Origin: Novosphingobium sp.
Lineage (GTDB): Bacteria > Pseudomonadota > Alphaproteobacteria > Sphingomonadales > Sphingomonadaceae
Direction: 5' to 3'
Length of the DNA: 64,000 bases
NCBI GenBank assembly: GCA_024236215.1
Contig: JACKKX010000002.1
Span: 558,001-622,000, forward strand
The first letter of the stretch is position 1. The number at the start of each line of letters is the position of its first letter. Both the position numbers and the translations under genes were made by a program. Shown here one piece after another: positions 2,914-41,788 of the stretch. The notes beneath the pieces are model-generated. The model saw only the letters and a program-made list of their open reading frames with translations, made no database searches and was not told the origin of the DNA.

Positions 2914-3639
2914 TCACTTTCCTGCCGGTTCGGGTGCCTGGGCCGCCTTGCTAAGCTTGCCCAGAACCTGGAGATAAGCGACCAGCGCATCCATTTCCGA
3001 TACGGTGCGCTTGTCGCCATCGAACAGGCGCACCTGCGTCGCCGGGCCATAGCGCTTCACCAGCCCCTGCGTGTCGCCATCGGGCGAAGCCTGGGCGACC
3101 GCGTCGGCTGGCGCGTTTGCGATCATCGCGTCAGTATAGGGCACACCTACGTCGCGCTGCGCTTTCAGGTGCTCGCCAAGGTAGGTGGTCTGCAATTCGG
3201 TGGTGTTCAGCCAGCGGTATTTCGGCATGACGGACTGCGGCACTACGCTGCGCGGGTTGGTGAGGTGTGCCACCTGCCAGGCGTCGGAATACTTGCCGCC
3301 GACGCGGGCGAGATCGGGACCGGTGCGCTTAGAGCCCCACAGCATCGGATGGTCGTACTTGGACTCCACCGCCAGCGAATAATGGCCATACCGATCCACG
3401 TCGTCCTGCAGCGTGCGGATCATCTGCGAATGGCAGGCATAGCAGCCTTCGCGGATGTAGATGTTGCGCCCGGCGAGTTCGAGCGGTGTGTAGACCCGCA
3501 TGTTCGGGTCGGTCTCCACCGTTTCGTCAATGGTGAACAGCGGGGCAATCTCGATCAGGCCGCCAATGCTTGCGACGACCATGATCGCGAGGACCAGGGT
3601 GATGGACTTGCGTTCAAGCCGGTAGTGGATTCCGAACAT
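2914..3639 (-). CDS. ccoO: cbb3-type cytochrome c oxidase subunit II (monohaem)
   Basis: A 241-aa membrane-anchored monohaem cytochrome. An N-terminal helix (about residues 13-31) is followed by the hallmark haem motif REGCYACHSQMIR with CYACH at 66-70, and by the axial Met in SVMPKYRW (M138). The protein takes electrons from CcoP and hands them to the binuclear centre of CcoN in the inner membrane. It starts six bases after the ccoN stop. Nothing unusual is seen; the length fits the family. Confidence 0.96.
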   Translation of the reverse strand: MFGIHYRLERKSITLVLAIMVVASIGGLIEIAPLFTIDETVETDPNMRVYTPLELAGRNIYIREGCYACHSQMIRTLQDDVDRYGHYSLAVESKYDHPMLWGSKRTGPDLARVGGKYSDAWQVAHLTNPRSVVPQSVMPKYRWLNTTELQTTYLGEHLKAQRDVGVPYTDAMIANAPADAVAQASPDGDTQGLVKRYGPATQVRLFDGDKRTVSEMDALVAYLQVLGKLSKAAQAPEPAGK

Positions 3640-3645
3640 CGCCGC

Positions 3646-5292
3646 TTACTCCGCAGGCTCGAGGTGGGCGAGGACCGGCTCATCTCCCGGCGGCGCAACG
3701 GTGGGCGCCGGTTGGCGGATCGTCATCCAGATATTGTAGCTGCCGACCACCGCGCCGGTCAGGAAGAACAGCCCGCCGATGGCCCGCGCGATGTAGTAGG
3801 GATGCATCGCCACGACCGTATCGAGGAAGGAGTAGGTCAGCGTGCCGCTGTCATTGTAGGTGCGCCACATCAGACCCTGCAGAACGCCCGAGTTCCACAT
3901 GGCAAAAACGTAGATCAGCGTTCCCGCCAGGGCGAGCCAGAAATGCACCTCGACCAGCGCCGGGGAATGCATCCGCTCACGCTTCCACAACCATGGCACC
4001 AGCGCATAGATCGAGCCGAAGGTGATCATGGCGACCCAGCCCAGCGCCCCCGAATGGACATGGCCGATCGTCCAGTCGGTATAGTGGGACAGCGAATTGA
4101 CCGGACGGATCGCCATGAACGATCCCTCGAACGTCGACAGGCCGTAGAAGACGGCGGCCATCATCATGAAGCGCAGCGTGGCGTCGTCGCGGACCTTGTC
4201 CCATGCGCCGTTCAGCGTCAGCAGCGCATTGGCCGCCGCGATCCACGAAGGGATAAGCAGCATCAGCGAGAAGGTCATGCCCAGCGTCTGCACCCACTGC
4301 GGCAGCGCCGTGTAGTGCAGGTGGTGCGAACCGGCCCACATGTAGAAGAAGGTGATCCCCCAGAAGCCGATGATCGACATGCGGTAGGAATAGATCGGGC
4401 GCCCAGCTCGCTTGGGCAGGTAATAGTACATCATGCCCAGGAAACCGGCGGTGAGGAAGAAGGCGACCGCGTTGTGGCCATACCACCACTGCGTCATCGC
4501 GTCCTGCACGCCAGAGAACGCCGAATAGCTCTTGGCGCCGGCGAAGGACACCGGCACCGCCAGGTTGTTGACGATATGGAGGATCGCGACGACGAGAATG
4601 AACGCCAGGTAATACCAGTTGGCGACGTAGATATGCGGCTCCTTGCGGCGCGCCAGCGTTCGCAGGTAGAGCACGAGGTAGGTCACCCAGACCACGACCA
4701 GCCAGATATCGGCATACCATTCCGGTTCGGCATATTCCTTCGACTGGGTAATGCCCATGAAATACCCCGACACCGCCAGGATGCAGAACAGGTTGTAGCC
4801 CAGCAGGACGAACCACGGGCTGAACTGGCCCGGCATCCGTGCGCGCGATGTGCGCTGCATCACATGGTAGGAGGTGGCGATCAGCGCATTGCCGCCAAAT
4901 CCGAAGATCACCCCGGTGGTGTGGACCGGCCGCATTCGCCCGAAGCTGGCCCATGCCGTGTCGAAGGTCATGTCGGGAAAGGCCAGCAACAATGCCACCC
5001 AGACGCCCATGAACATCCCGAACACGGCCCAGGCCATGGACAGGATGATCCCAGCCTTGCTCGGGTCATCGTAATATGAGGCCAGTCGCGTATCGTCCGG
5101 TTCCGGCGCAAAATATCCGCGCAGGACCACGGCGAGCAGGCCAAGGCTGTAGAGCGCTACGATGTAGCCGTGAATTTCCATGGCATCGGCGCGCATCGCT
5201 GCAGCTGCCGCCATGACGATACCGATCATCGTGCCCAGGATCAGGATGGCAATCGCTGCCTGGCGTTCGCTTAAGGTGAGACCTGAGATCAC
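3646..5292 (-). CDS. ccoN: cbb3-type cytochrome c oxidase subunit I (catalytic)
   Basis: A 548-aa polytopic membrane protein (about 14 helices), the proton-pumping catalytic subunit that reduces oxygen at high affinity. Metal-ligand histidines are visible: H124 in RPVHTTG (low-spin haem b), H273 in WWYGHNAV and H323/H324 in GSHHLHY (CuB), and H411/H413 in [10 protein letters not shown] (haem ligands). The reading frame begins with GTG at 5292-5290, preceded by a good GAGGGAG ribosome site, so GTG is the likely start. It is the first gene of the ccoNOQP operon. About 250 bp separate it from the gene upstream and carry a perfect inverted repeat (listed separately). Confidence 0.97.
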
Positions 5293-6408: not shown

Positions 6409-6855
6409 TCAGTCTGTGGCCGGAAGGTTCCGGCTGAGCTGTTCGTTGAACCAGGCAGTGTCAGGCACGAGGTCGGCGACGGTGTAGCCATCCAGTCGCT
6501 TGAGGAAGTCGCCAAGGGCCAGCCCCAGGGCATTCTGGAGGCCGCAGACGCCGAACGCTGGGCACATGTTCCGCGCCGGCGACATGCATTCGACGAAGGT
6601 TTCGAGGTTTTCGAGATCCCTGACGACGGTTCCAACGTTCAGATCTCTTGCCGGAACGGCCAGGCGCAAGCCGCCGCTGCGCCCGCGAGCCGTGTCGACG
6701 TAGCCCGATTGCTGCAGGCGCTGCGCCACCTTGGCCAGATGATTGCGCGAGATGCCATAGCTGCGTGCGATCTCATCGACCGACATTTGCCGGTCGGCTG
6801 AGGCGAGCAGCATGAGGATGCGCAGGCCGTAATCGGTTTGCAGGCTGAGATGCAC
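6409..6855 (-). CDS. Rrf2 family regulator, NsrR-like
   Basis: A winged-helix regulator of about 148 aa. The N-terminal LQTDYGLRILMLLA is the classic Rrf2/NsrR start, followed by the recognition region SRNHLAKVAQRLQQSGYVDTARGRSGGLRLA. Three cysteines lie in ECMSPARNMCPAFGVCGL (C96, C104, C110 counted from the upstream ATG at 6873), as expected for an iron-sulfur cluster that senses nitric oxide. I prefer GTG 6855 because family members begin just before L-x-x-x-TDYG; ATG 6873 would add six residues. NsrR represses nitric oxide detoxification genes. The nearby nnrS and copper-protein gene support this reading. Confidence 0.85.
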   Translation of the reverse strand: MHLSLQTDYGLRILMLLASADRQMSVDEIARSYGISRNHLAKVAQRLQQSGYVDTARGRSGGLRLAVPARDLNVGTVVRDLENLETFVECMSPARNMCPAFGVCGLQNALGLALGDFLKRLDGYTVADLVPDTAWFNEQLSRNLPATD

Positions 6856-6915
6856 GATGCCAACATGGGCCAAGTCGTTTTTCGAGGCAACCGTCTGGAG
6901 CCGCCTCGCGCCATG

Positions 6916-7329
6916 TCAGGTTTTGTCTGCACTCTTGCGGACATTGACGATGGTGAGTTTGCGTTCACGCCCGTCGCGGTCAGGCCACAGGATGGATTGG
7001 CCGGCGCGCAGACCGATCAAACCGGCGCCGACTGGCGTGAGAATGGACACACGCCCGGCCGCGATATCGGCGTCCCGGGGAAAGACGAGTTCGACCGTCC
7101 GGTCGGCGCCGCTCGCCTCGTCGATGAATTCCACTGTGGAATGCATCGTGACGACATCGGGCGGAAGGCTGGCCGCGTCATGGACGGTGGCGCGTGAAAT
7201 TTCGTCGAGCAATTGCCGACTGACTTCCGGGACCCGCGCTTTGGCACTCAACGCGAGATCAGTCAGTGTATCAGCCTCGACATCTATCATGTGTATCGGC
7301 GGCCGCCGTGTGGCCTTCTTCGTGGTCAT
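6916..7329 (-). CDS. rnk: Regulator of nucleoside diphosphate kinase / GreA-GreB C-terminal domain protein
   Basis: A 137-aa protein with an N-terminal helical part (residues 1-55) and a GreA/GreB C-terminal FKBP-like domain (about 60-130). That domain shows MHSTVEFIDEASGADRTVELVFPRDADIAAGRVSILTPVGAGLIGL and the pattern SILWPDRDGRERKLTIV, typical of Rnk. Rnk proteins bind RNA polymerase near the secondary channel but lack the long coiled coil of GreA. The role in sphingomonads is not defined. It ends about 60 bp upstream of the NsrR-like gene on the same strand. Confidence 0.85.
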   Translation of the reverse strand: MTTKKATRRPPIHMIDVEADTLTDLALSAKARVPEVSRQLLDEISRATVHDAASLPPDVVTMHSTVEFIDEASGADRTVELVFPRDADIAAGRVSILTPVGAGLIGLRAGQSILWPDRDGRERKLTIVNVRKSADKT

Positions 7330-7569
7330 GACAATGCAAAATCCGGAGCTTGTATCGCGGGTCCGCGATCAAATCGCGGCGATGGAGAGGATTTTCGCCC
7401 CGAGACCGGAGCACACCGCACCGGATCCCGGGGCTAGTTGCCCGCGAGAAGCTGACCTGCGTGAACGCGAAAACGCGGTTGGATGGATTGAGACCACATG
7501 ATGCGAGCGTGCAACGACCGCATCGACAAGTCAAATATGCTGGTCTGATTGGCGCCCCTTCCCCGCAAA

Positions 7570-7815
7570 TCAGGCAAAGGCGCCTGCATCATCCATTTGC
7601 TGGAGCGTCAGTGGCATTTCGACCGCGTCTGCAACAAGGATCGCGAACTTGGCTCCGCGATAATAGATGTCCGGCCTGTGCCAGGCCTCCATCACCTTGA
7701 GGCGCACACCGGCCAGTTCCACCTCTTCGCCGGGAACCGGCGGGTTGGAGAAATGGAAGCTTCCTTCGGCTGTTGCCGTTTGCCGATTCCGGCCCAGGAA
7801 TATGTCTACCAGCAT
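7570..7815 (-). CDS. 81-aa protein of unknown function downstream of sodB
   Basis: I do not recognise this protein. It opens MLVDIFLGRNRQTATAEGSFHFSNPPVPGEEVELAG and looks like a small soluble beta-rich domain with a conserved-looking EAWHRPDIYYRGAKFAILV segment. The start at ATG 7815 gives a compact protein; a longer frame to 8004 overlaps sodB in a non-coding-looking proline-rich stretch. It lies 28 bp after sodB and is probably the last gene of the peroxiredoxin-carbonic anhydrase-sod transcript, which suggests an oxidative stress setting but proves nothing about function. Confidence 0.6.
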   Translation of the reverse strand: MLVDIFLGRNRQTATAEGSFHFSNPPVPGEEVELAGVRLKVMEAWHRPDIYYRGAKFAILVADAVEMPLTLQQMDDAGAFA

Positions 7816-35376: not shown

Positions 35377-36321
35377 CTATCCAATGCCGCCACCCCCGAC
35401 ATAAGTGCAGTCGCTCAGTTGCGGCGCACCCAATAGTTCGGTGATCGACGCGCACTGGGCGATAAAGCGTTCACCCTTCTCCAGTCTCGCCGCTTCCTGG
35501 GCGAAGTTGGAGCCAAAGTGCAGTGTTACGTCGGCGAAATCGCTCCCGGCGTACAGCGAGATCATCGGTTCGTCCGCCGCATCGAGCTCGATCGACGAAA
35601 TGCGCCCTTCGATCTGTACTGGCTGAGCGCCGTACTTGAGCTGCGCTGCTTGCTCGTTGGCCTGGTAATCCTGGTAAAGCTCTGCCGCCGTTACCGGGAG
35701 CGCAGCAGCCTCTGGTACCTGCAAACCAGACGGATTGTCTGCCGGTGGCCCCAGTGTGGCACTGCTGGGCTTTGGTGGATCGACCAGGGTGCCAATAATA
35801 GCCAGCCCGACAAGCACGGCAGCGCCGATGCCCAGCCCTTTAAGCAGCTTGTTCGAGCTTTGCACTGGCGTGCCAGGCACGAACGCATAGCCGCAATGCT
35901 TGCACGCCATAGCAGCCGCCTTCACAGTTTCGGCGCAGCGCGGGCAAACCTTGTCGCCGTCGATTGGCATTGGATTCGCTTGTGCCCCCGGCGACGCGCC
36001 AGTGGCGAAGGTAAGAGCGCCCGGAGCCGTCCGAACCCAGCCCTTGCGTTCAAGCATGGTCATCGTGAGCTCGTTGCCCTTGATGCCGTAGAACACCATC
36101 GAGCCGATCAACCCAAGCCCTGCCAGTGGGACGAGCATGCTGATCTTCGGCGAGAGCACGCCGACAACGCCGATCATGGCGACGATAGTGCCGTGCAGGT
36201 GCAGGCCGCGAATGAACAGGGGGATGCCGTAGAATTCCGTCAACAGGAACAGCATCCAGCTGAAGCCCTGTTTTACTATCTTCTGCTCTCCAGTTTGCGG
36301 ATTGGTGAAGGTGACAAACAT
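35377..36321 (-). CDS. Membrane protein with zinc ribbon and OB-fold (tRNA_anti-like) domain
   Basis: A 314-aa protein with four parts. Residues 1-95 form an N-terminal membrane module (FVTFTNPQTGEQKIVKQGFSWMLFLLTEFYGIPLF and two further hydrophobic segments). A zinc ribbon follows with CPRC and CKHCGYAF. Then comes another helix (LLKGLGIGAAVLVGLAIIGTLV), and finally a tRNA_anti-like OB-fold domain (YQDYQANEQAAQLKYGAQPVQIEGRISSIEL ... DVTLHFG), which in other proteins binds nucleic acid or ligands outside the membrane. ATG 36321 begins the conserved module; longer frames are not supported. Function unknown. It is divergent from the XRE regulator at 36408. Confidence 0.75.
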   Translation of the reverse strand: MFVTFTNPQTGEQKIVKQGFSWMLFLLTEFYGIPLFIRGLHLHGTIVAMIGVVGVLSPKISMLVPLAGLGLIGSMVFYGIKGNELTMTMLERKGWVRTAPGALTFATGASPGAQANPMPIDGDKVCPRCAETVKAAAMACKHCGYAFVPGTPVQSSNKLLKGLGIGAAVLVGLAIIGTLVDPPKPSSATLGPPADNPSGLQVPEAAALPVTAAELYQDYQANEQAAQLKYGAQPVQIEGRISSIELDAADEPMISLYAGSDFADVTLHFGSNFAQEAARLEKGERFIAQCASITELLGAPQLSDCTYVGGGGIG

Positions 36322-36407
36322 CTGAAATCCTCCGAATTCTGTTGGTGATGTCGCTAGCAGGCTGAGAAAGGGTCGTAAATACCGTGGCTCTATAGGCGCT
36401 GCTGCCG

Positions 36408-36665
36408 TTGATTGAGCCAGTGGCTCGAACTTCTGGGAAAAATGCTGAAACGCCGATTCTAAAGCGGCTAGGCGATGCTGTGCGCGCGCGCCGCAAAGAG
36501 CTGGCCTTGTCGCAAGAAGCCCTGGCTGATTTGGCCGGTGTTGATCGTTCACACATGGGCAAGATCGAACGGGGCGAGCGCAACGTGACACTGCTCAACA
36601 TCGAGCGAATTGCTTCCGCGCTGAAAACCACCCCGTCCGCCTTGCTGGGTAGTGCTGGGTACTAA
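36408..36665 (+). CDS. Small XRE family HTH regulator
   Basis: An 85-aa protein, nearly all one Cro/C1 helix-turn-helix (about residues 18-80; LGDAVRARRKELALSQEALADLAGVDRSHMGKIERGERNVTLLNIERIASAL). It has no extra domain. Such single-domain regulators often control restriction, toxin or phage genes. It is divergent from the zinc-ribbon protein, 86 bp apart, and could control it. Confidence 0.85.
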   Translation: MIEPVARTSGKNAETPILKRLGDAVRARRKELALSQEALADLAGVDRSHMGKIERGERNVTLLNIERIASALKTTPSALLGSAGY

Positions 36666-36668
36666 CTT

Positions 36669-36764
36669 TCAATACTCGCTGGTCAGCATGACCGTGAGCA
36701 CGCGCGTAGTTTGTGCCGGGTCGGCCGGATCATCCGAACCATATGTCAGGCTCGGATCGTAATA
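36669..36764 (-). pseudogene. DUF3768 gene, C-terminal fragment (left of the IS110 element)
   Basis: On the minus strand the stop TGA at 36671-36669 closes a frame reading YYDPSLTYGSDDPADPAQTTR and VLTVMLTSEY, the conserved C-terminus of DUF3768 proteins. Upstream of the first YY codons (36764) the frame enters the IS110 left end. It completes the N-terminal fragment at 40801-41082: joined, they give 125 codons in one frame with the family motif WKID-YYDP. Confidence 0.8.
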
Positions 36765-36825
36765 GATCCTATGCAGGCCGGATCGGCTATGCCGTTGTTC
36801 CGTCAAACCCCACGGAGAACGCTAA

Positions 36826-37977
36826 ATGGAGAACTCGTCGTCAGATTACTGCCCCAAGACTTCTGTCATTGTCAGCGTTGAGCTCAGCAAGCGCAACTGG
36901 CTTGTTGCTTCGCTCTCGCCAGGAGCCGCGAAGCCTTCGCTACGGACAATTCCTGCCGGGAACAGCGCGGCACTGATCAGTCACCTTCGCAATCTTGAGT
37001 GCAAGGCCGCTGATCGTATCGGTGAACCTGCCGCCATTCGCCTGTGCTTCGAGATTGGATATGATGGCTTCTGGCTCGCAAGGCTACTGCGGTCGAACGA
37101 TATCGATACATATGTGCTGGATCCCGCCAGCTTCCTCGTGTCGCGGCGAGGCAGGCGCGCAAAAACCGACCGGATCGACGCCGAAGCAATGATCGGAATC
37201 CTCAAAGCCTATCTCGCTGGCGACAAAAGCGTGTGCCGTGTCGTGGACGTGCCCTCCCCCGAGGAGGAGGACGCGCGCAGAGTAATGCGAGAGCGCGGCG
37301 ATCTCGTGCACGAGCGCACCCGAATTATCTCTCGGATCAGGGGGCTACTTGCATTACAGGGCATACGATCTGTCAAAGCCATCAAGGGCGGTGACTGGTC
37401 AAAACAGCTCGACGACATGCGCACCGGCGATGGGCGGCCTTTGCCACCAAACCTTCGTCGACAAATTGAGCGCTGTTTCGAACGGCTCGCGTTGCTCAAC
37501 GATCAGATCAAGGACATCGAGCGGGACCGCGCTGAAGTTGTGCTCCATGAGGAGTCTACCTTCCCATGCCGAGAGAAAGCGGTTCGCCTTGAGCAGCTGA
37601 AGGGCATTGGTCCGAACAGCGCGGCAATGTTGGTTGCTGAGGTTTTTTGCCGAAAGTTCGAAAGCCGACGACACGTCGCGGCCTTCCTTGGGTTAGCTCC
37701 GGCGCCCTTCGCCAGCGGCGACGTGTCGCGTGATCAGGGCATCAGCAAAGCCGGTAACCGAAGCACACGTGTGCAGATGGTGGAACTTGCCTGGTGTTGG
37801 TTGAAATATCAGCCAAGTAGCGAACTGACCGTTTGGTATCGCAACCGGTTCAAAGGCAACGGCGCTCGCGCGGCAAAGGTGGGGATCGTTGCGCTCGCCC
37901 GAAAATTGTTGATCGCGCTTTGGCGCTTTGTGGAGACCGGTCTGGTCCCTCAAGGTGCCGAGCTCCGCGCCGCCTGA
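36826..37977 (+). CDS. IS110 family recombinase
   Basis: A 383-aa DEDD-type recombinase. The N-terminal RuvC-like domain (about 1-165) has E19 in VSVELSKRNW, E76 in CFEIGYDGFWL, and D115/D118 in AKTDRIDAEA. A coiled-coil region (about 170-250) leads to the C-terminal Tnp_20 domain with a helix-hairpin-helix start (LEQLKGIGPNSAAML) and the catalytic serine S297 in PAPFASGDVSRDQGISKAGN. IS110 enzymes use a structured bridge RNA to pair donor and target DNA. The gene is intact. The 629-bp array begins at its codon 277. Confidence 0.93.
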   Translation: MENSSSDYCPKTSVIVSVELSKRNWLVASLSPGAAKPSLRTIPAGNSAALISHLRNLECKAADRIGEPAAIRLCFEIGYDGFWLARLLRSNDIDTYVLDPASFLVSRRGRRAKTDRIDAEAMIGILKAYLAGDKSVCRVVDVPSPEEEDARRVMRERGDLVHERTRIISRIRGLLALQGIRSVKAIKGGDWSKQLDDMRTGDGRPLPPNLRRQIERCFERLALLNDQIKDIERDRAEVVLHEESTFPCREKAVRLEQLKGIGPNSAAMLVAEVFCRKFESRRHVAAFLGLAPAPFASGDVSRDQGISKAGNRSTRVQMVELAWCWLKYQPSSELTVWYRNRFKGNGARAAKVGIVALARKLLIALWRFVETGLVPQGAELRAA

Positions 37978-38284
37978 TGCCTATGTTGCAACAGGCTCGA
38001 TAAGGCGACGCGGATTGGTGTGATGCGTGACCGGGAAAGTTGATGGCGCCTGAAAACGCCCAGTAGTAGTTTGGTCCGCATCCGCCTTTGCTCGATCCGG
38101 GGATGTGAATACGGATTATGGTGCGCGGGAACGGCCGCGACCGGATACAAGTCTATGCACGGATAGTGCATCAGCTGACCTCGGAACGAATGAAGCCAAT
38201 CCTTGAGCATTGCGTGTGGGGGCCCCCAACGCGTCAACAGAAGGAACCGTTCAATGCGATCTTGACAAGGCCCGGATCATACAA
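37978..38284 (+). ncRNA. Putative bridge RNA region of the IS110/IS1111 element (first of five copies)
   Basis: The 307 bp between the recombinase stop and the right end are where IS1111-group elements encode their bridge RNA. Stem-loops are visible: TGGCG-N7-CGCCC near 38043-38063, ATGCAC-GGATA-GTGCAT at 38155-38171 and the GC-rich palindrome at about 38217-38228. A loop-like stretch GATCCGGGG (about 38093-38101) shares GATCCGGG with the minus strand of the right end. The assignment rests on position and structure by eye; no covariance search was run. Identical copies lie at intervals of 629 bp. Confidence 0.45.
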
Positions 38285-38606
38285 GTTCGAAAGCCGACGA
38301 CACGTCGCGGCCTTCCTTGGGTTAGCTCCGGCGCCCTTCGCCAGCGGCGACGTGTCGCGTGATCAGGGCATCAGCAAAGCCGGTAACCGAAGCACACGTG
38401 TGCAGATGGTGGAACTTGCCTGGTGTTGGTTGAAATATCAGCCAAGTAGCGAACTGACCGTTTGGTATCGCAACCGGTTCAAAGGCAACGGCGCTCGCGC
38501 GGCAAAGGTGGGGATCGTTGCGCTCGCCCGAAAATTGTTGATCGCGCTTTGGCGCTTTGTGGAGACCGGTCTGGTCCCTCAAGGTGCCGAGCTCCGCGCC
38601 GCCTGA
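38118..38606 (+). CDS. Chimeric frame: right-end sequence fused to recombinase serine domain (first of four)
   Basis: At each array junction the right-end DNA opens in frame into the truncated recombinase gene, giving 162 codons: 56 from the non-coding end (MVRGNGRDRIQVYARIVHQ...) and 106 from the recombinase C-terminal domain (FESRRHVAAFLG to ELRAA), including the catalytic Ser. Identical frames occur at 38747-39235, 39376-39864 and 40005-40493. None has a good ribosome site, so expression is doubtful. If made, it would be a serine-domain protein without the RuvC-like domain. Confidence 0.3.
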   Translation: MVRGNGRDRIQVYARIVHQLTSERMKPILEHCVWGPPTRQQKEPFNAILTRPGSYKFESRRHVAAFLGLAPAPFASGDVSRDQGISKAGNRSTRVQMVELAWCWLKYQPSSELTVWYRNRFKGNGARAAKVGIVALARKLLIALWRFVETGLVPQGAELRAA

Positions 38607-40800
38607 TGCCTATGTTGCAACAGGCTCGATAAGGCGACGCGGATTGGTGTGATGCGTGACCGGGAAAGTTGATGGCGCCTGAAAACGCCCAGTAGTAGTT
38701 TGGTCCGCATCCGCCTTTGCTCGATCCGGGGATGTGAATACGGATTATGGTGCGCGGGAACGGCCGCGACCGGATACAAGTCTATGCACGGATAGTGCAT
38801 CAGCTGACCTCGGAACGAATGAAGCCAATCCTTGAGCATTGCGTGTGGGGGCCCCCAACGCGTCAACAGAAGGAACCGTTCAATGCGATCTTGACAAGGC
38901 CCGGATCATACAAGTTCGAAAGCCGACGACACGTCGCGGCCTTCCTTGGGTTAGCTCCGGCGCCCTTCGCCAGCGGCGACGTGTCGCGTGATCAGGGCAT
39001 CAGCAAAGCCGGTAACCGAAGCACACGTGTGCAGATGGTGGAACTTGCCTGGTGTTGGTTGAAATATCAGCCAAGTAGCGAACTGACCGTTTGGTATCGC
39101 AACCGGTTCAAAGGCAACGGCGCTCGCGCGGCAAAGGTGGGGATCGTTGCGCTCGCCCGAAAATTGTTGATCGCGCTTTGGCGCTTTGTGGAGACCGGTC
39201 TGGTCCCTCAAGGTGCCGAGCTCCGCGCCGCCTGATGCCTATGTTGCAACAGGCTCGATAAGGCGACGCGGATTGGTGTGATGCGTGACCGGGAAAGTTG
39301 ATGGCGCCTGAAAACGCCCAGTAGTAGTTTGGTCCGCATCCGCCTTTGCTCGATCCGGGGATGTGAATACGGATTATGGTGCGCGGGAACGGCCGCGACC
39401 GGATACAAGTCTATGCACGGATAGTGCATCAGCTGACCTCGGAACGAATGAAGCCAATCCTTGAGCATTGCGTGTGGGGGCCCCCAACGCGTCAACAGAA
39501 GGAACCGTTCAATGCGATCTTGACAAGGCCCGGATCATACAAGTTCGAAAGCCGACGACACGTCGCGGCCTTCCTTGGGTTAGCTCCGGCGCCCTTCGCC
39601 AGCGGCGACGTGTCGCGTGATCAGGGCATCAGCAAAGCCGGTAACCGAAGCACACGTGTGCAGATGGTGGAACTTGCCTGGTGTTGGTTGAAATATCAGC
39701 CAAGTAGCGAACTGACCGTTTGGTATCGCAACCGGTTCAAAGGCAACGGCGCTCGCGCGGCAAAGGTGGGGATCGTTGCGCTCGCCCGAAAATTGTTGAT
39801 CGCGCTTTGGCGCTTTGTGGAGACCGGTCTGGTCCCTCAAGGTGCCGAGCTCCGCGCCGCCTGATGCCTATGTTGCAACAGGCTCGATAAGGCGACGCGG
39901 ATTGGTGTGATGCGTGACCGGGAAAGTTGATGGCGCCTGAAAACGCCCAGTAGTAGTTTGGTCCGCATCCGCCTTTGCTCGATCCGGGGATGTGAATACG
40001 GATTATGGTGCGCGGGAACGGCCGCGACCGGATACAAGTCTATGCACGGATAGTGCATCAGCTGACCTCGGAACGAATGAAGCCAATCCTTGAGCATTGC
40101 GTGTGGGGGCCCCCAACGCGTCAACAGAAGGAACCGTTCAATGCGATCTTGACAAGGCCCGGATCATACAAGTTCGAAAGCCGACGACACGTCGCGGCCT
40201 TCCTTGGGTTAGCTCCGGCGCCCTTCGCCAGCGGCGACGTGTCGCGTGATCAGGGCATCAGCAAAGCCGGTAACCGAAGCACACGTGTGCAGATGGTGGA
40301 ACTTGCCTGGTGTTGGTTGAAATATCAGCCAAGTAGCGAACTGACCGTTTGGTATCGCAACCGGTTCAAAGGCAACGGCGCTCGCGCGGCAAAGGTGGGG
40401 ATCGTTGCGCTCGCCCGAAAATTGTTGATCGCGCTTTGGCGCTTTGTGGAGACCGGTCTGGTCCCTCAAGGTGCCGAGCTCCGCGCCGCCTGATGCCTAT
40501 GTTGCAACAGGCTCGATAAGGCGACGCGGATTGGTGTGATGCGTGACCGGGAAAGTTGATGGCGCCTGAAAACGCCCAGTAGTAGTTTGGTCCGCATCCG
40601 CCTTTGCTCGATCCGGGGATGTGAATACGGATTATGGTGCGCGGGAACGGCCGCGACCGGATACAAGTCTATGCACGGATAGTGCATCAGCTGACCTCGG
40701 AACGAATGAAGCCAATCCTTGAGCATTGCGTGTGGGGGCCCCCAACGCGTCAACAGAAGGAACCGTTCAATGCGATCTTGACAAGGCCCGGATCATACAA

Positions 40801-41082
40801 ATCGATTTTCCAGAACATGTCGGCACCGAACAGGGTGAAGTCGCCAAAATCGCGCTCGCCGTGCGGATCGTTGTCCTTGTCAAAGCCGTCGTAAGTGGCG
40901 AGAGCCAGGGCAACCATACAGGGGTTGTAGCCGGGCAGTGCCTCGATACCCTGGGTAATCATCACCCGCCCGCCATTGGCTCCGATCGCGCTCCTGTCGC
41001 CGCGCCGTAACGCATCGTTGAGGCGGGCGATCATTTCGGCCCGCGGAACCGGGGCACACGTTTCCTGTTGCTGGATCTGCAT
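40801..41082 (-). pseudogene. DUF3768 gene, N-terminal fragment (right of the IS110 element)
   Basis: Ninety-four codons from ATG 41082 with the DUF3768 motifs ARLNDALRRG, GGRVMITQGIEAL and DGFDKDNDPHGERDFGDFTLFGADMFWKID. At 40800 the frame enters the IS110 right end and stops after 16 foreign codons. DUF3768 is a small protein family of unknown function common on alphaproteobacterial plasmids and islands. The missing C-terminus lies at 36669-36764. Confidence 0.85.
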
Positions 41083-41173
41083 GTTGCATTCCTTTCTCGT
41101 AGTTTGGCTGTGTGGTTGAGGTGTCGCGCCGCGAGGAGCGGCTAGACCTATTGCGCGCCGCTCATGGCGCTGA

Positions 41174-41788
41174 TCAGATGCGGCTCAGGAACCGCTTGGG
41201 ATTGAACGCGGCTTTCCAGCCGTGCTGCTCATAGGTGGTGGAGTCGAGCAGGCCATCTGCACATGCGCGCCATAGGACCGTATCGATGGTAGCAATGCGG
41301 TAGCCGGTCTGCCGGGACAGGCGGGCGCATAGCTTGTGCGTGTCAGTCCGGTCTCGGCGGGCCAAGCGCTCCAAATGGACATCGGGCTTGGCGACATCAG
41401 CGCCCAAATTTTTGGCCAGGTGAAAACTGGTTACGCCACCGATCCACGGCAAGCTGCGCAGGAAATTCATAGGGTCTGCTTCAGCCAGGTATGTCGCAAA
41501 CAGTTGCTCGCGCTCACCCCAGATCCAATCGATGGCCTTGGCTTTGCCCGGATGACCAAATACGGCGGTTGCTGATATTCCATTGGTCAGCGCGGCCATG
41601 CAGCGGTTGAAGATCGGTTCCGCGACCCGGTTCATCATCCCTGAGTTGCAGATCACATAGACGGCCTGCTCTGCGAACGTCTCGGCATGAGCTGGACGCG
41701 GGATCGCTTCCGACCATTCGATCATGTGGCCATAGCCCTCGGCACGCATCACCGCTTCGATCCGGCGAAAGCGCTTCAGGGTAATCAC
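41174..41788 (-). CDS. HhH DNA-glycosylase-like protein
   Basis: A protein of about 204 aa. GTG at 41788 overlaps the integrase TGA (GTGA), which makes it the likely coupled start, although an ATG at 41857 is open. The segment LRSLPWIGGVTSFHLAKNLGADVAKPDVHLERLA is a helix-hairpin-helix followed by the conserved Asp region of HhH-GPD DNA glycosylases, and IATIDTVLWRAC resembles their last helix. These enzymes remove damaged bases. The substrate is not clear, and the N-terminal half is less typical. Its tight link to an integrase suggests a mobile-element role. Confidence 0.65.
   Translation of the reverse strand: MITLKRFRRIEAVMRAEGYGHMIEWSEAIPRPAHAETFAEQAVYVICNSGMMNRVAEPIFNRCMAALTNGISATAVFGHPGKAKAIDWIWGEREQLFATYLAEADPMNFLRSLPWIGGVTSFHLAKNLGADVAKPDVHLERLARRDRTDTHKLCARLSRQTGYRIATIDTVLWRACADGLLDSTTYEQHGWKAAFNPKRFLSRI

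What the first reader, a model, noticed from the sequence alone, without database searches (positions are those of the whole stretch)
37656..40800. Five tandem copies of the IS110 right end, each ending at the element boundary
A 629-bp unit is repeated exactly five times. Its right edge is the precise element/host junction, and each inner junction joins the right end to codon 277 of the recombinase. A random tandem duplication would not be expected to stop at the element end. The unit contains the serine catalytic domain and the non-coding end where IS1111-group bridge RNAs lie, so the array multiplies both. I suggest that the recombinase (or its RNA) used an internal pseudo-target at 37656 together with its right end, giving 629-bp circles or one-ended insertions. 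The internal site GTTCGAAAGCC and the right target flank ATCGATTTTCC both hold TCGA followed by CC.
Basis: partly seen in the sequence, partly recalled or inferred. Interest (0 to 1): 0.9.

Follow-up and report, generated by a model that had tools for sequence, protein, structure and literature searches.

The report
Tandem right ends of jumping gene
A small bacterial jumping gene of the RNA-guided IS110/IS1111 kind carries five exact head-to-tail copies of its own right end, and a second strain carries a shorter array ending at the same base, which suggests that the element's end chemistry can misfire and multiply that end together with the guide-RNA gene.

Summary
An IS1111-type element (36765-40800) sits exactly in a DUF3768 gene. 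One full transposase gene is followed by five identical 629-bp units (37656-40800), the last ending at the element/host boundary. Of 35 related loci with a readable right-end/host junction, 3 have tandem right ends: the window, and the chromosomal (3 copies) and plasmid (2) elements of Sphingopyxis sp. FD7, whose unit is different (133 bp) but stops at the same base. The FD7 array occurs at two target sites. The FD7 internal site is the presumed donor-guide segment of the guide-RNA gene, which repeats the right-end sequence, so slippage alone could explain FD7, but hardly the window. Most likely: recombinase cutting at the right end, aberrant joining to an upstream site with 2-6 matching bases, then homologous expansion. 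In 140 other IS110 loci no comparable array was recognised; 17 were flagged, 9 of them examined and 8 judged by coordinates alone. A modest, testable new variant of a known kind.

The parts
36669..36764 (-). 3' part of the interrupted host DUF3768 gene
   Evidence: joined flanks give an intact 125-codon ORF, DUF3768 83/83 positions
36765..36825 (+). left end of the element, starting GATCCTATGCAGG
   Evidence: GATCCTATG at this place in all 28 left ends of relatives printed (27 distinct records)
36826..37977 (+). full-length IS110-family transposase/recombinase, 383 aa
   Evidence: NF033542 197.8 bits over cut-off 140; PF02371 and PF01548
37656..38284 (+). unit 1 of the array (last part of tnp, guide-RNA region, right end)
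38033..38044 (+). predicted right-target guide GGGAAAGUUGAU, complementary (with G-U) to the top strand right of the insertion point
   Evidence: matched by hand to the targets; similar in 9 aligned elements (three versions); mostly in the 5' side of an internal loop
38061..38070 (+). predicted left-target guide CAGUAGUAGU, matching the top strand left of the insertion point
   Evidence: by hand; order top-strand complement first as described for IS1111 (PMC11187229, passages)
38143..38153 (+). GGATACAAGTC: presumed donor-guide segment, repeats the right-end sequence ATACAA(G); the internal breakpoint of the FD7 array falls here
38261..38284 (+). right end CTTGACAAGGCCCGGATCATACAA, copy 1
   Evidence: relatives
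38285..38913 (+). unit 2
38914..39542 (+). unit 3
39543..40171 (+). unit 4
40172..40800 (+). unit 5, ending at the element/host boundary
40801..41082 (-). 5' part of the interrupted host DUF3768 gene
   Evidence: PF12599, joined flanks

Best explanation
This is an IS1111-type element (RNA-guided DEDD/serine recombinase) whose right end has been tandemly amplified. Proposed course: the element's recombinase cuts the top strand at its right end, leaving a free 3' end ...CATACAA(R). Instead of joining the left end or a target, this end is joined, by strand transfer or by priming repair synthesis, to an upstream site in the same element that shares a few bases with it: AA (or AAG if the right flank or circle supplied G) at 37654-37656 in the window, ATACAA at the place of 38145-38150 in FD7. 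The product is L-p-R|p-R. Once two units exist, ordinary homologous recombination changes the number (5 here; 2 and 3 in FD7). Shown: the arrays, their exact ends, two different units with one right breakpoint, the same FD7 array at two target sites. Inferred: cutting by the recombinase, the joining step, and the expansion by homologous recombination.
For: Two different units (629 and 133 bp) in two genomes, both ending at the right-end base. No other tandem duplication inside or abutting this element was seen in the scan of L001-L113. Under duplication at random short matches, about 0.14-0.21% of repeats of at least 2 or 4 bp touch that base. FD7 carries the same array at two target sites: the plasmid one has DUF3768 annotated, the chromosomal one has the same target letters and a flank reading ...VFWKID, DUF3768-like by eye; so the array appears to move, or convert, with the element. 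The element is identical over the aligned 899 + 629 bp to a single-right-end copy on pTK5 (L041), so the window array looks recent. For IS621 the top strand is cut next to the core, leaving a 3'-OH (PMC11208158, abstract and passages) of the polarity fused here. IS1111-type elements make circles without detected empty sites (ISEc11: PMC11187229 passages; IS4321: 5248 circle-junction and 0 deletion-junction reads, PMC5001619 table passage).
Against: The two internal sites are unlike each other and the window's is not target-like (rank 1022 of 3004) and only weakly left-end-like (8 of 15, reached by 47 of 2938 positions; the FD7 site 4 of 15, reached by 1666). FD7 has 6-9 bp of identity at its join and could be plain slippage: of repeats of at least 9 bp, those touching the right end are 1 of 17 and 1 of 12 in two relatives with a GTC right flank, 0 of 14 and 0 of 11 in two with an ATC flank. 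Only two genomes show it; no other IS110 element was recognised with such an array. Circles, cuts and reads were not observed.
Confidence: 0.5

Rival explanations
1. Recombinase-independent tandem duplication: replication slippage or microhomology-mediated repair, the right end being merely one of the two short repeats; later homologous expansion.
For: The FD7 join lies in ATACAA(GTC), a 6-9 bp direct repeat 133-134 bp apart that exists in the four single-right-end relatives tested, because the presumed donor-guide segment repeats the right end. Breakpoints carry microhomology in both cases.
Against: The window join has only 2 bp (4 bp if it formed beside a GTC flank); about 94,000-99,000 repeats of at least 2 bp and 6,700-7,800 of at least 4 bp exist per relative, and 0.14-0.21% of them touch the right end.
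Confidence: 0.27
2. Self-insertion then deletion: a circular copy inserted at 37655/37656 of a resident copy, giving L-p[L...R]p-R; homologous recombination between the two left parts removed one, leaving L-p-R|p-R, then unequal exchange expanded it.
For: Gives exactly the observed order and junction; the expected circle junction (CATACAAG-ATCC) and the internal site share AAG in register (by hand); core pairing matters for IS621 (PMC11208160 passages).
Against: The site does not resemble the DUF3768 targets. I noticed no element inserted in another copy among the related loci, but did not search for it systematically; the insertion in L053 is another sequence.
Confidence: 0.15
3. Assembly artefact.
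For: Reads not available; 7-contig assembly; draft relatives show how k-mer effects mimic junctions (common contig ends of exactly 141 and 99 bases).
Against: Five identical 629-bp units over 3.1 kb in one contig would need long reads (inference); an analogous array is in a plasmid record titled complete (FD7), though its sequencing method was not seen.
Confidence: 0.05

Closest known systems
IS1111 group of the IS110 family (e.g. ISEc11, IS4321/IS5075; seekRNA elements)
   Same: Transposase family, long non-coding region downstream of tnp, two target guides in the order top-strand complement then bottom-strand complement, one orientation at a fixed target, no target duplication in the window.
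   Different: Right end present five times; not mentioned in the passages read, and the word 'tandem' does not occur in the main text of PMC11187229 or PMC11208160.
Sphingopyxis sp. FD7 copies of the same element (NZ_AP017899.1 pSFD01, and the chromosome of G122, equated with FD7 by identical plasmid coordinates)
   Same: Tandem right ends ending at the same base; same target letters.
   Different: Unit 133 bp beginning in the presumed donor-guide segment; 2 and 3 copies.
Tandem IS copies known elsewhere (IS30 dimers, PMC9333248 seen as a search listing; tandem IS26, PMC5001619 passages)
   Same: Head-to-tail repeats involving an element end.
   Different: There whole elements are repeated; here the right end meets an internal site and the left end is absent from the units.

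Membership tests
IS110 family transposase | DEDD (PF01548) plus Transposase_20 (PF02371) domains | tested here: met
IS1111 group | long non-coding region downstream of tnp | tested here: met
   61 nt upstream against 307 nt downstream
IS1111 group | guide RNA with top-strand complement 5' of bottom-strand complement | tested here: met
   sequence match by hand to the natural targets and fold; the RNA itself is not shown, and fold z-scores -0.77 and -0.99 are not significant
IS1111 group | subterminal inverted repeats of 11-13 bp | tested here: inconclusive
   by eye only TATG plus a gapped match (TATGCAGGCCGGATC / TATGATCCGGGCC); no formal test
IS1111 group | fixed target, one orientation, no target duplication | tested here: met
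   absence of duplication tested for the window only. A DUF3768 gene is annotated at the junction in 10 of the 11 annotated plasmid loci L040-L049 and L076; not in L048. L050, L051, L052, L054, L055 list none and L053 is unannotated; their target letters are
IS1111 group | circular intermediate with junction promoter | not testable with these tools
   needs DNA; the right end holds TTGACA as a possible -35

The most novel reading that the evidence does not exclude
An RNA-guided IS1111 recombinase can amplify its own right end: it treats an internal site as a substitute left end, producing tandem arrays that multiply the guide-RNA gene and spare right ends and that remain mobile, so that end-anchored amplification is a natural second reaction of these enzymes.
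Probability: 0.3. Interest if true: 0.72.

Novelty: new variant of a known kind. Interest (0 to 1): 0.5.

Why it matters
IS110/IS1111 recombinases are being studied as RNA-programmed DNA-rearrangement tools. A natural side reaction that joins one element end to an internal site would show how single ends are processed, is directly testable, and would be a fidelity issue for tools. The FD7 case also suggests that a guide-RNA gene which must repeat its own donor sequence gives the element an intrinsic direct repeat prone to duplication.

Tried and rejected
Draft-genome hints of further arrays were rejected or left open. Two contigs of G761 begin exactly at the FD7 breakpoint, but their common end is exactly 141 bases, as a k-mer boundary gives; right arms of G664 and of H115 share exactly 99, and the left matches of G664 stop after 144 and 145 bases. 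H115 left arms end 4 bp before the window's internal site after a common stretch of 535 bases; unexplained, not counted.

Tandem repeats flagged beside other IS110 genes (17 of 140 loci): L163, L165, L171 are repeats of the target region (REP-like, by eye); L131, L159, L160 likewise, judged from repeated matches; L201 repeats lie outside the element; L188 has a second right end 642 bp downstream; L106 has a 61-bp exact tandem on the 5' side, unresolved. L138, L166, L167, L175, L193, L202, L213, L214 were judged only by the coordinates (copies scattered, far from the gene, or on opposite sides of it).

Viral contigs: window junction none; FD7 junction 4 exact 16-mers, none in an element by blastn. 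Plasmids, query across the window junction: 13 records, none with the junction in one piece. Rfam, 36000-41500 only: one match far below its cut-off. Literature: searches, and passages of PMC11187229, PMC11208160, PMC11208158, PMC5001619 and PMC3706429 showed no description of tandem IS110 right ends; PMC3706429 reports an IS110-like insertion with a 5-bp target duplication. Search 67 and passages of PMC7273453 gave FD7 as a complete genome without method. The library is open-access only.

Full report
What is there. The window lies in a 3.08 Mb, 7-contig genome of the same family as Sphingopyxis sp. FD7 (G122 equated with FD7 by identical plasmid coordinates). From 36765 to 40800 it holds an IS110-family element: left end, a 383-aa transposase gene (NF033542, PF02371, PF01548) and five letter-identical 629-bp units. 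It is the only full copy in the genome; one distant IS110 protein (28% identity) lies elsewhere. The element splits a DUF3768 gene: joining the flanks gives the gene back with no base gained or lost.

What kind of element. The non-coding region is downstream of tnp (307 nt against 61 nt upstream). In an alignment of nine relatives it holds GGGAAAGUUGAU (two other versions in relatives), which pairs with the top strand right of the insertion point, then a hairpin GGCG...CGCC, then CAGUAGUAGU, which matches the top strand left of it. By hand, the window target ATCGATTTTCC pairs over 11 positions with the first, two of them G-U. This is the order reported for IS1111 seekRNAs (PMC11187229 passages). 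A second conserved stem-loop has GGAUACAAGUC on its 5' side, nearly the letters of the right end followed by RTC; I read it as the donor guide (inference). Energies of the two stems are not better than shuffles and only 6 of 65 predicted pairs show changes on both sides, so the argument rests on conservation and on the match to targets.

Relatives. Close relatives came from genome contigs, plasmids, 397 family genomes, four genera (80, 94, 14 and 9 genomes; the 14 gave nothing) and viral contigs. I count 35 distinct loci whose right-end/host junction is in the record: the window and the 34 (L012-L016, L018, L019, L027, L030, L040-L055, L058, L059, L064, L076, L077, L350, L354, L362, L368); repeated fetches of one record counted once; L017, L020, L021, L022 and L028, in which I found no right end, and the lone right end L067 left out. 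Three of the 35 have tandem right ends: the window (5 x 629 bp), FD7 chromosome (3) and FD7 plasmid (2), unit 133 bp. Sixteen of the 35 are draft or metagenome contigs, in which arrays could collapse. The window element is identical to the pTK5 copy over the aligned left 899 bp and the 629-bp unit, and that copy has one right end: the array looks recent.

The right breakpoint. In the window the join is CATACAA|GTTCGAAAG (2 bp ambiguous); in FD7 it is ATACAA|GTCTATGC (6 bp ambiguous). Both units end at the element's last base. In four single-right-end relatives, 0.14-0.15% of direct repeats of at least 2 bp, and 0.17-0.21% of at least 4 bp, touch that base; of repeats of at least 9 bp it is 1 of 17, 1 of 12, 0 of 14 and 0 of 11. 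So the window junction is hard to explain by random microhomology, whereas FD7 is compatible with slippage at the repeat that the guide gene shares with the right end. The FD7 array being at two target sites in one strain suggests that an array-bearing element still transposes, or that one copy converted the other.

Is the internal site a target? Not by its letters. Against a matrix from 15 natural sites (a selection that includes the window's own), 37655|37656 ranks 1022 of 3004 positions and the FD7 site 66 of 3004; natural sites score 11.1 to 31.5 in sum, the window site -16.9 and the FD7 site -5.5. As a substitute left end the window site matches 8 of 15 bases, reached by 47 of 2938 positions, and the FD7 site 4 of 15 without gaps, reached by 1666: weak at best. 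What both internal sites share is AAG at the join, the same letters as at the expected right-end/left-end joint of a circle (CATACAAG), which would fit exchange at a shared core; this is suggestive only.

Mechanism. For IS621 the enzyme cuts the top strand beside the core, leaving a 3'-OH (PMC11208158 passages). The 3' end that would be so made at the right end is the one fused in both arrays. I therefore favour recombinase cutting followed by aberrant joining upstream, then homologous expansion (0.5), over recombinase-free duplication (0.27), self-insertion followed by deletion (0.15) and artefact (0.05). No step of the chemistry was observed.

Generality. Among 140 other IS110 loci (L084-L223; many are copies of one element in one genome), 17 had direct repeats within 4 kb. 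Nine were examined: none is an end-anchored array of the present kind, though L188 has a second right end 642 bp downstream and L106 an unresolved 61-bp tandem. Eight were judged by coordinates only. In the pattern search (397 genomes, 7 with a match) only the window genome and FD7 have right ends in tandem. So the phenomenon looks rare in general and, so far, confined to this element.

Literature. Searches of an open-access library returned no description of tandem IS110/IS1111 right ends; of the papers listed I saw passages of five on this subject and the rest only as listings.

Noticed in passing
L027:773-1570 and L016:7467-7889 (relatives of the window element): These elements carry extra DNA between the guide-RNA region and the right end: a carbonic anhydrase gene (Pro_CA, 134.5 bits) in L027 and a 140-aa ORF without Pfam match in L016. 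IS1111 elements with passenger genes next to the right end.
   Followed up: partly
L067:1501-1524 (G363 contig 30): A lone right end of the Novosphingobium type is followed by a target-like flank, but the 330 bases before it do not look like the element by eye: a solo end or a cargo-bearing derivative.
   Followed up: no
L018, L050, L051 (right end about 7466): Right end is followed by GATCTTG, lacking the RTC seen at other insertions, while L044 has ATCGATCTTG after the right end and the same left flank letters.
   Followed up: no
L021 and L022 (Sphingopyxis H115 contig 13, both ends): Both contig ends stop 4 bp before the window's internal breakpoint after 535 identical bases, not explained by the 99-base overlap seen on the other side.
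   Followed up: partly
window 38118-38606, 38747-39235, 39376-39864, 40005-40493: Each inner junction fuses in frame an ATG ORF in the right end to the C-terminal catalytic domain, giving four identical 162-aa ORFs. Probably chance.
   Followed up: no
L053:6870-8040: In Sphingomonas sp. MEA3-1 the element's tnp is interrupted, at base 38-40 of the region that corresponds to the window's unit, by about 1.2 kb that looks by eye like an IS630-type transposase.
   Followed up: no
L188:2937-3049 and 3579-3691: An IS110 element in another genus has a second right-end copy 642 bp downstream (93% identical), perhaps another cargo arrangement.
   Followed up: partly
L106:2551-2675: Exact 61-bp tandem duplication on the 5' side of an IS110 gene.
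   Followed up: partly
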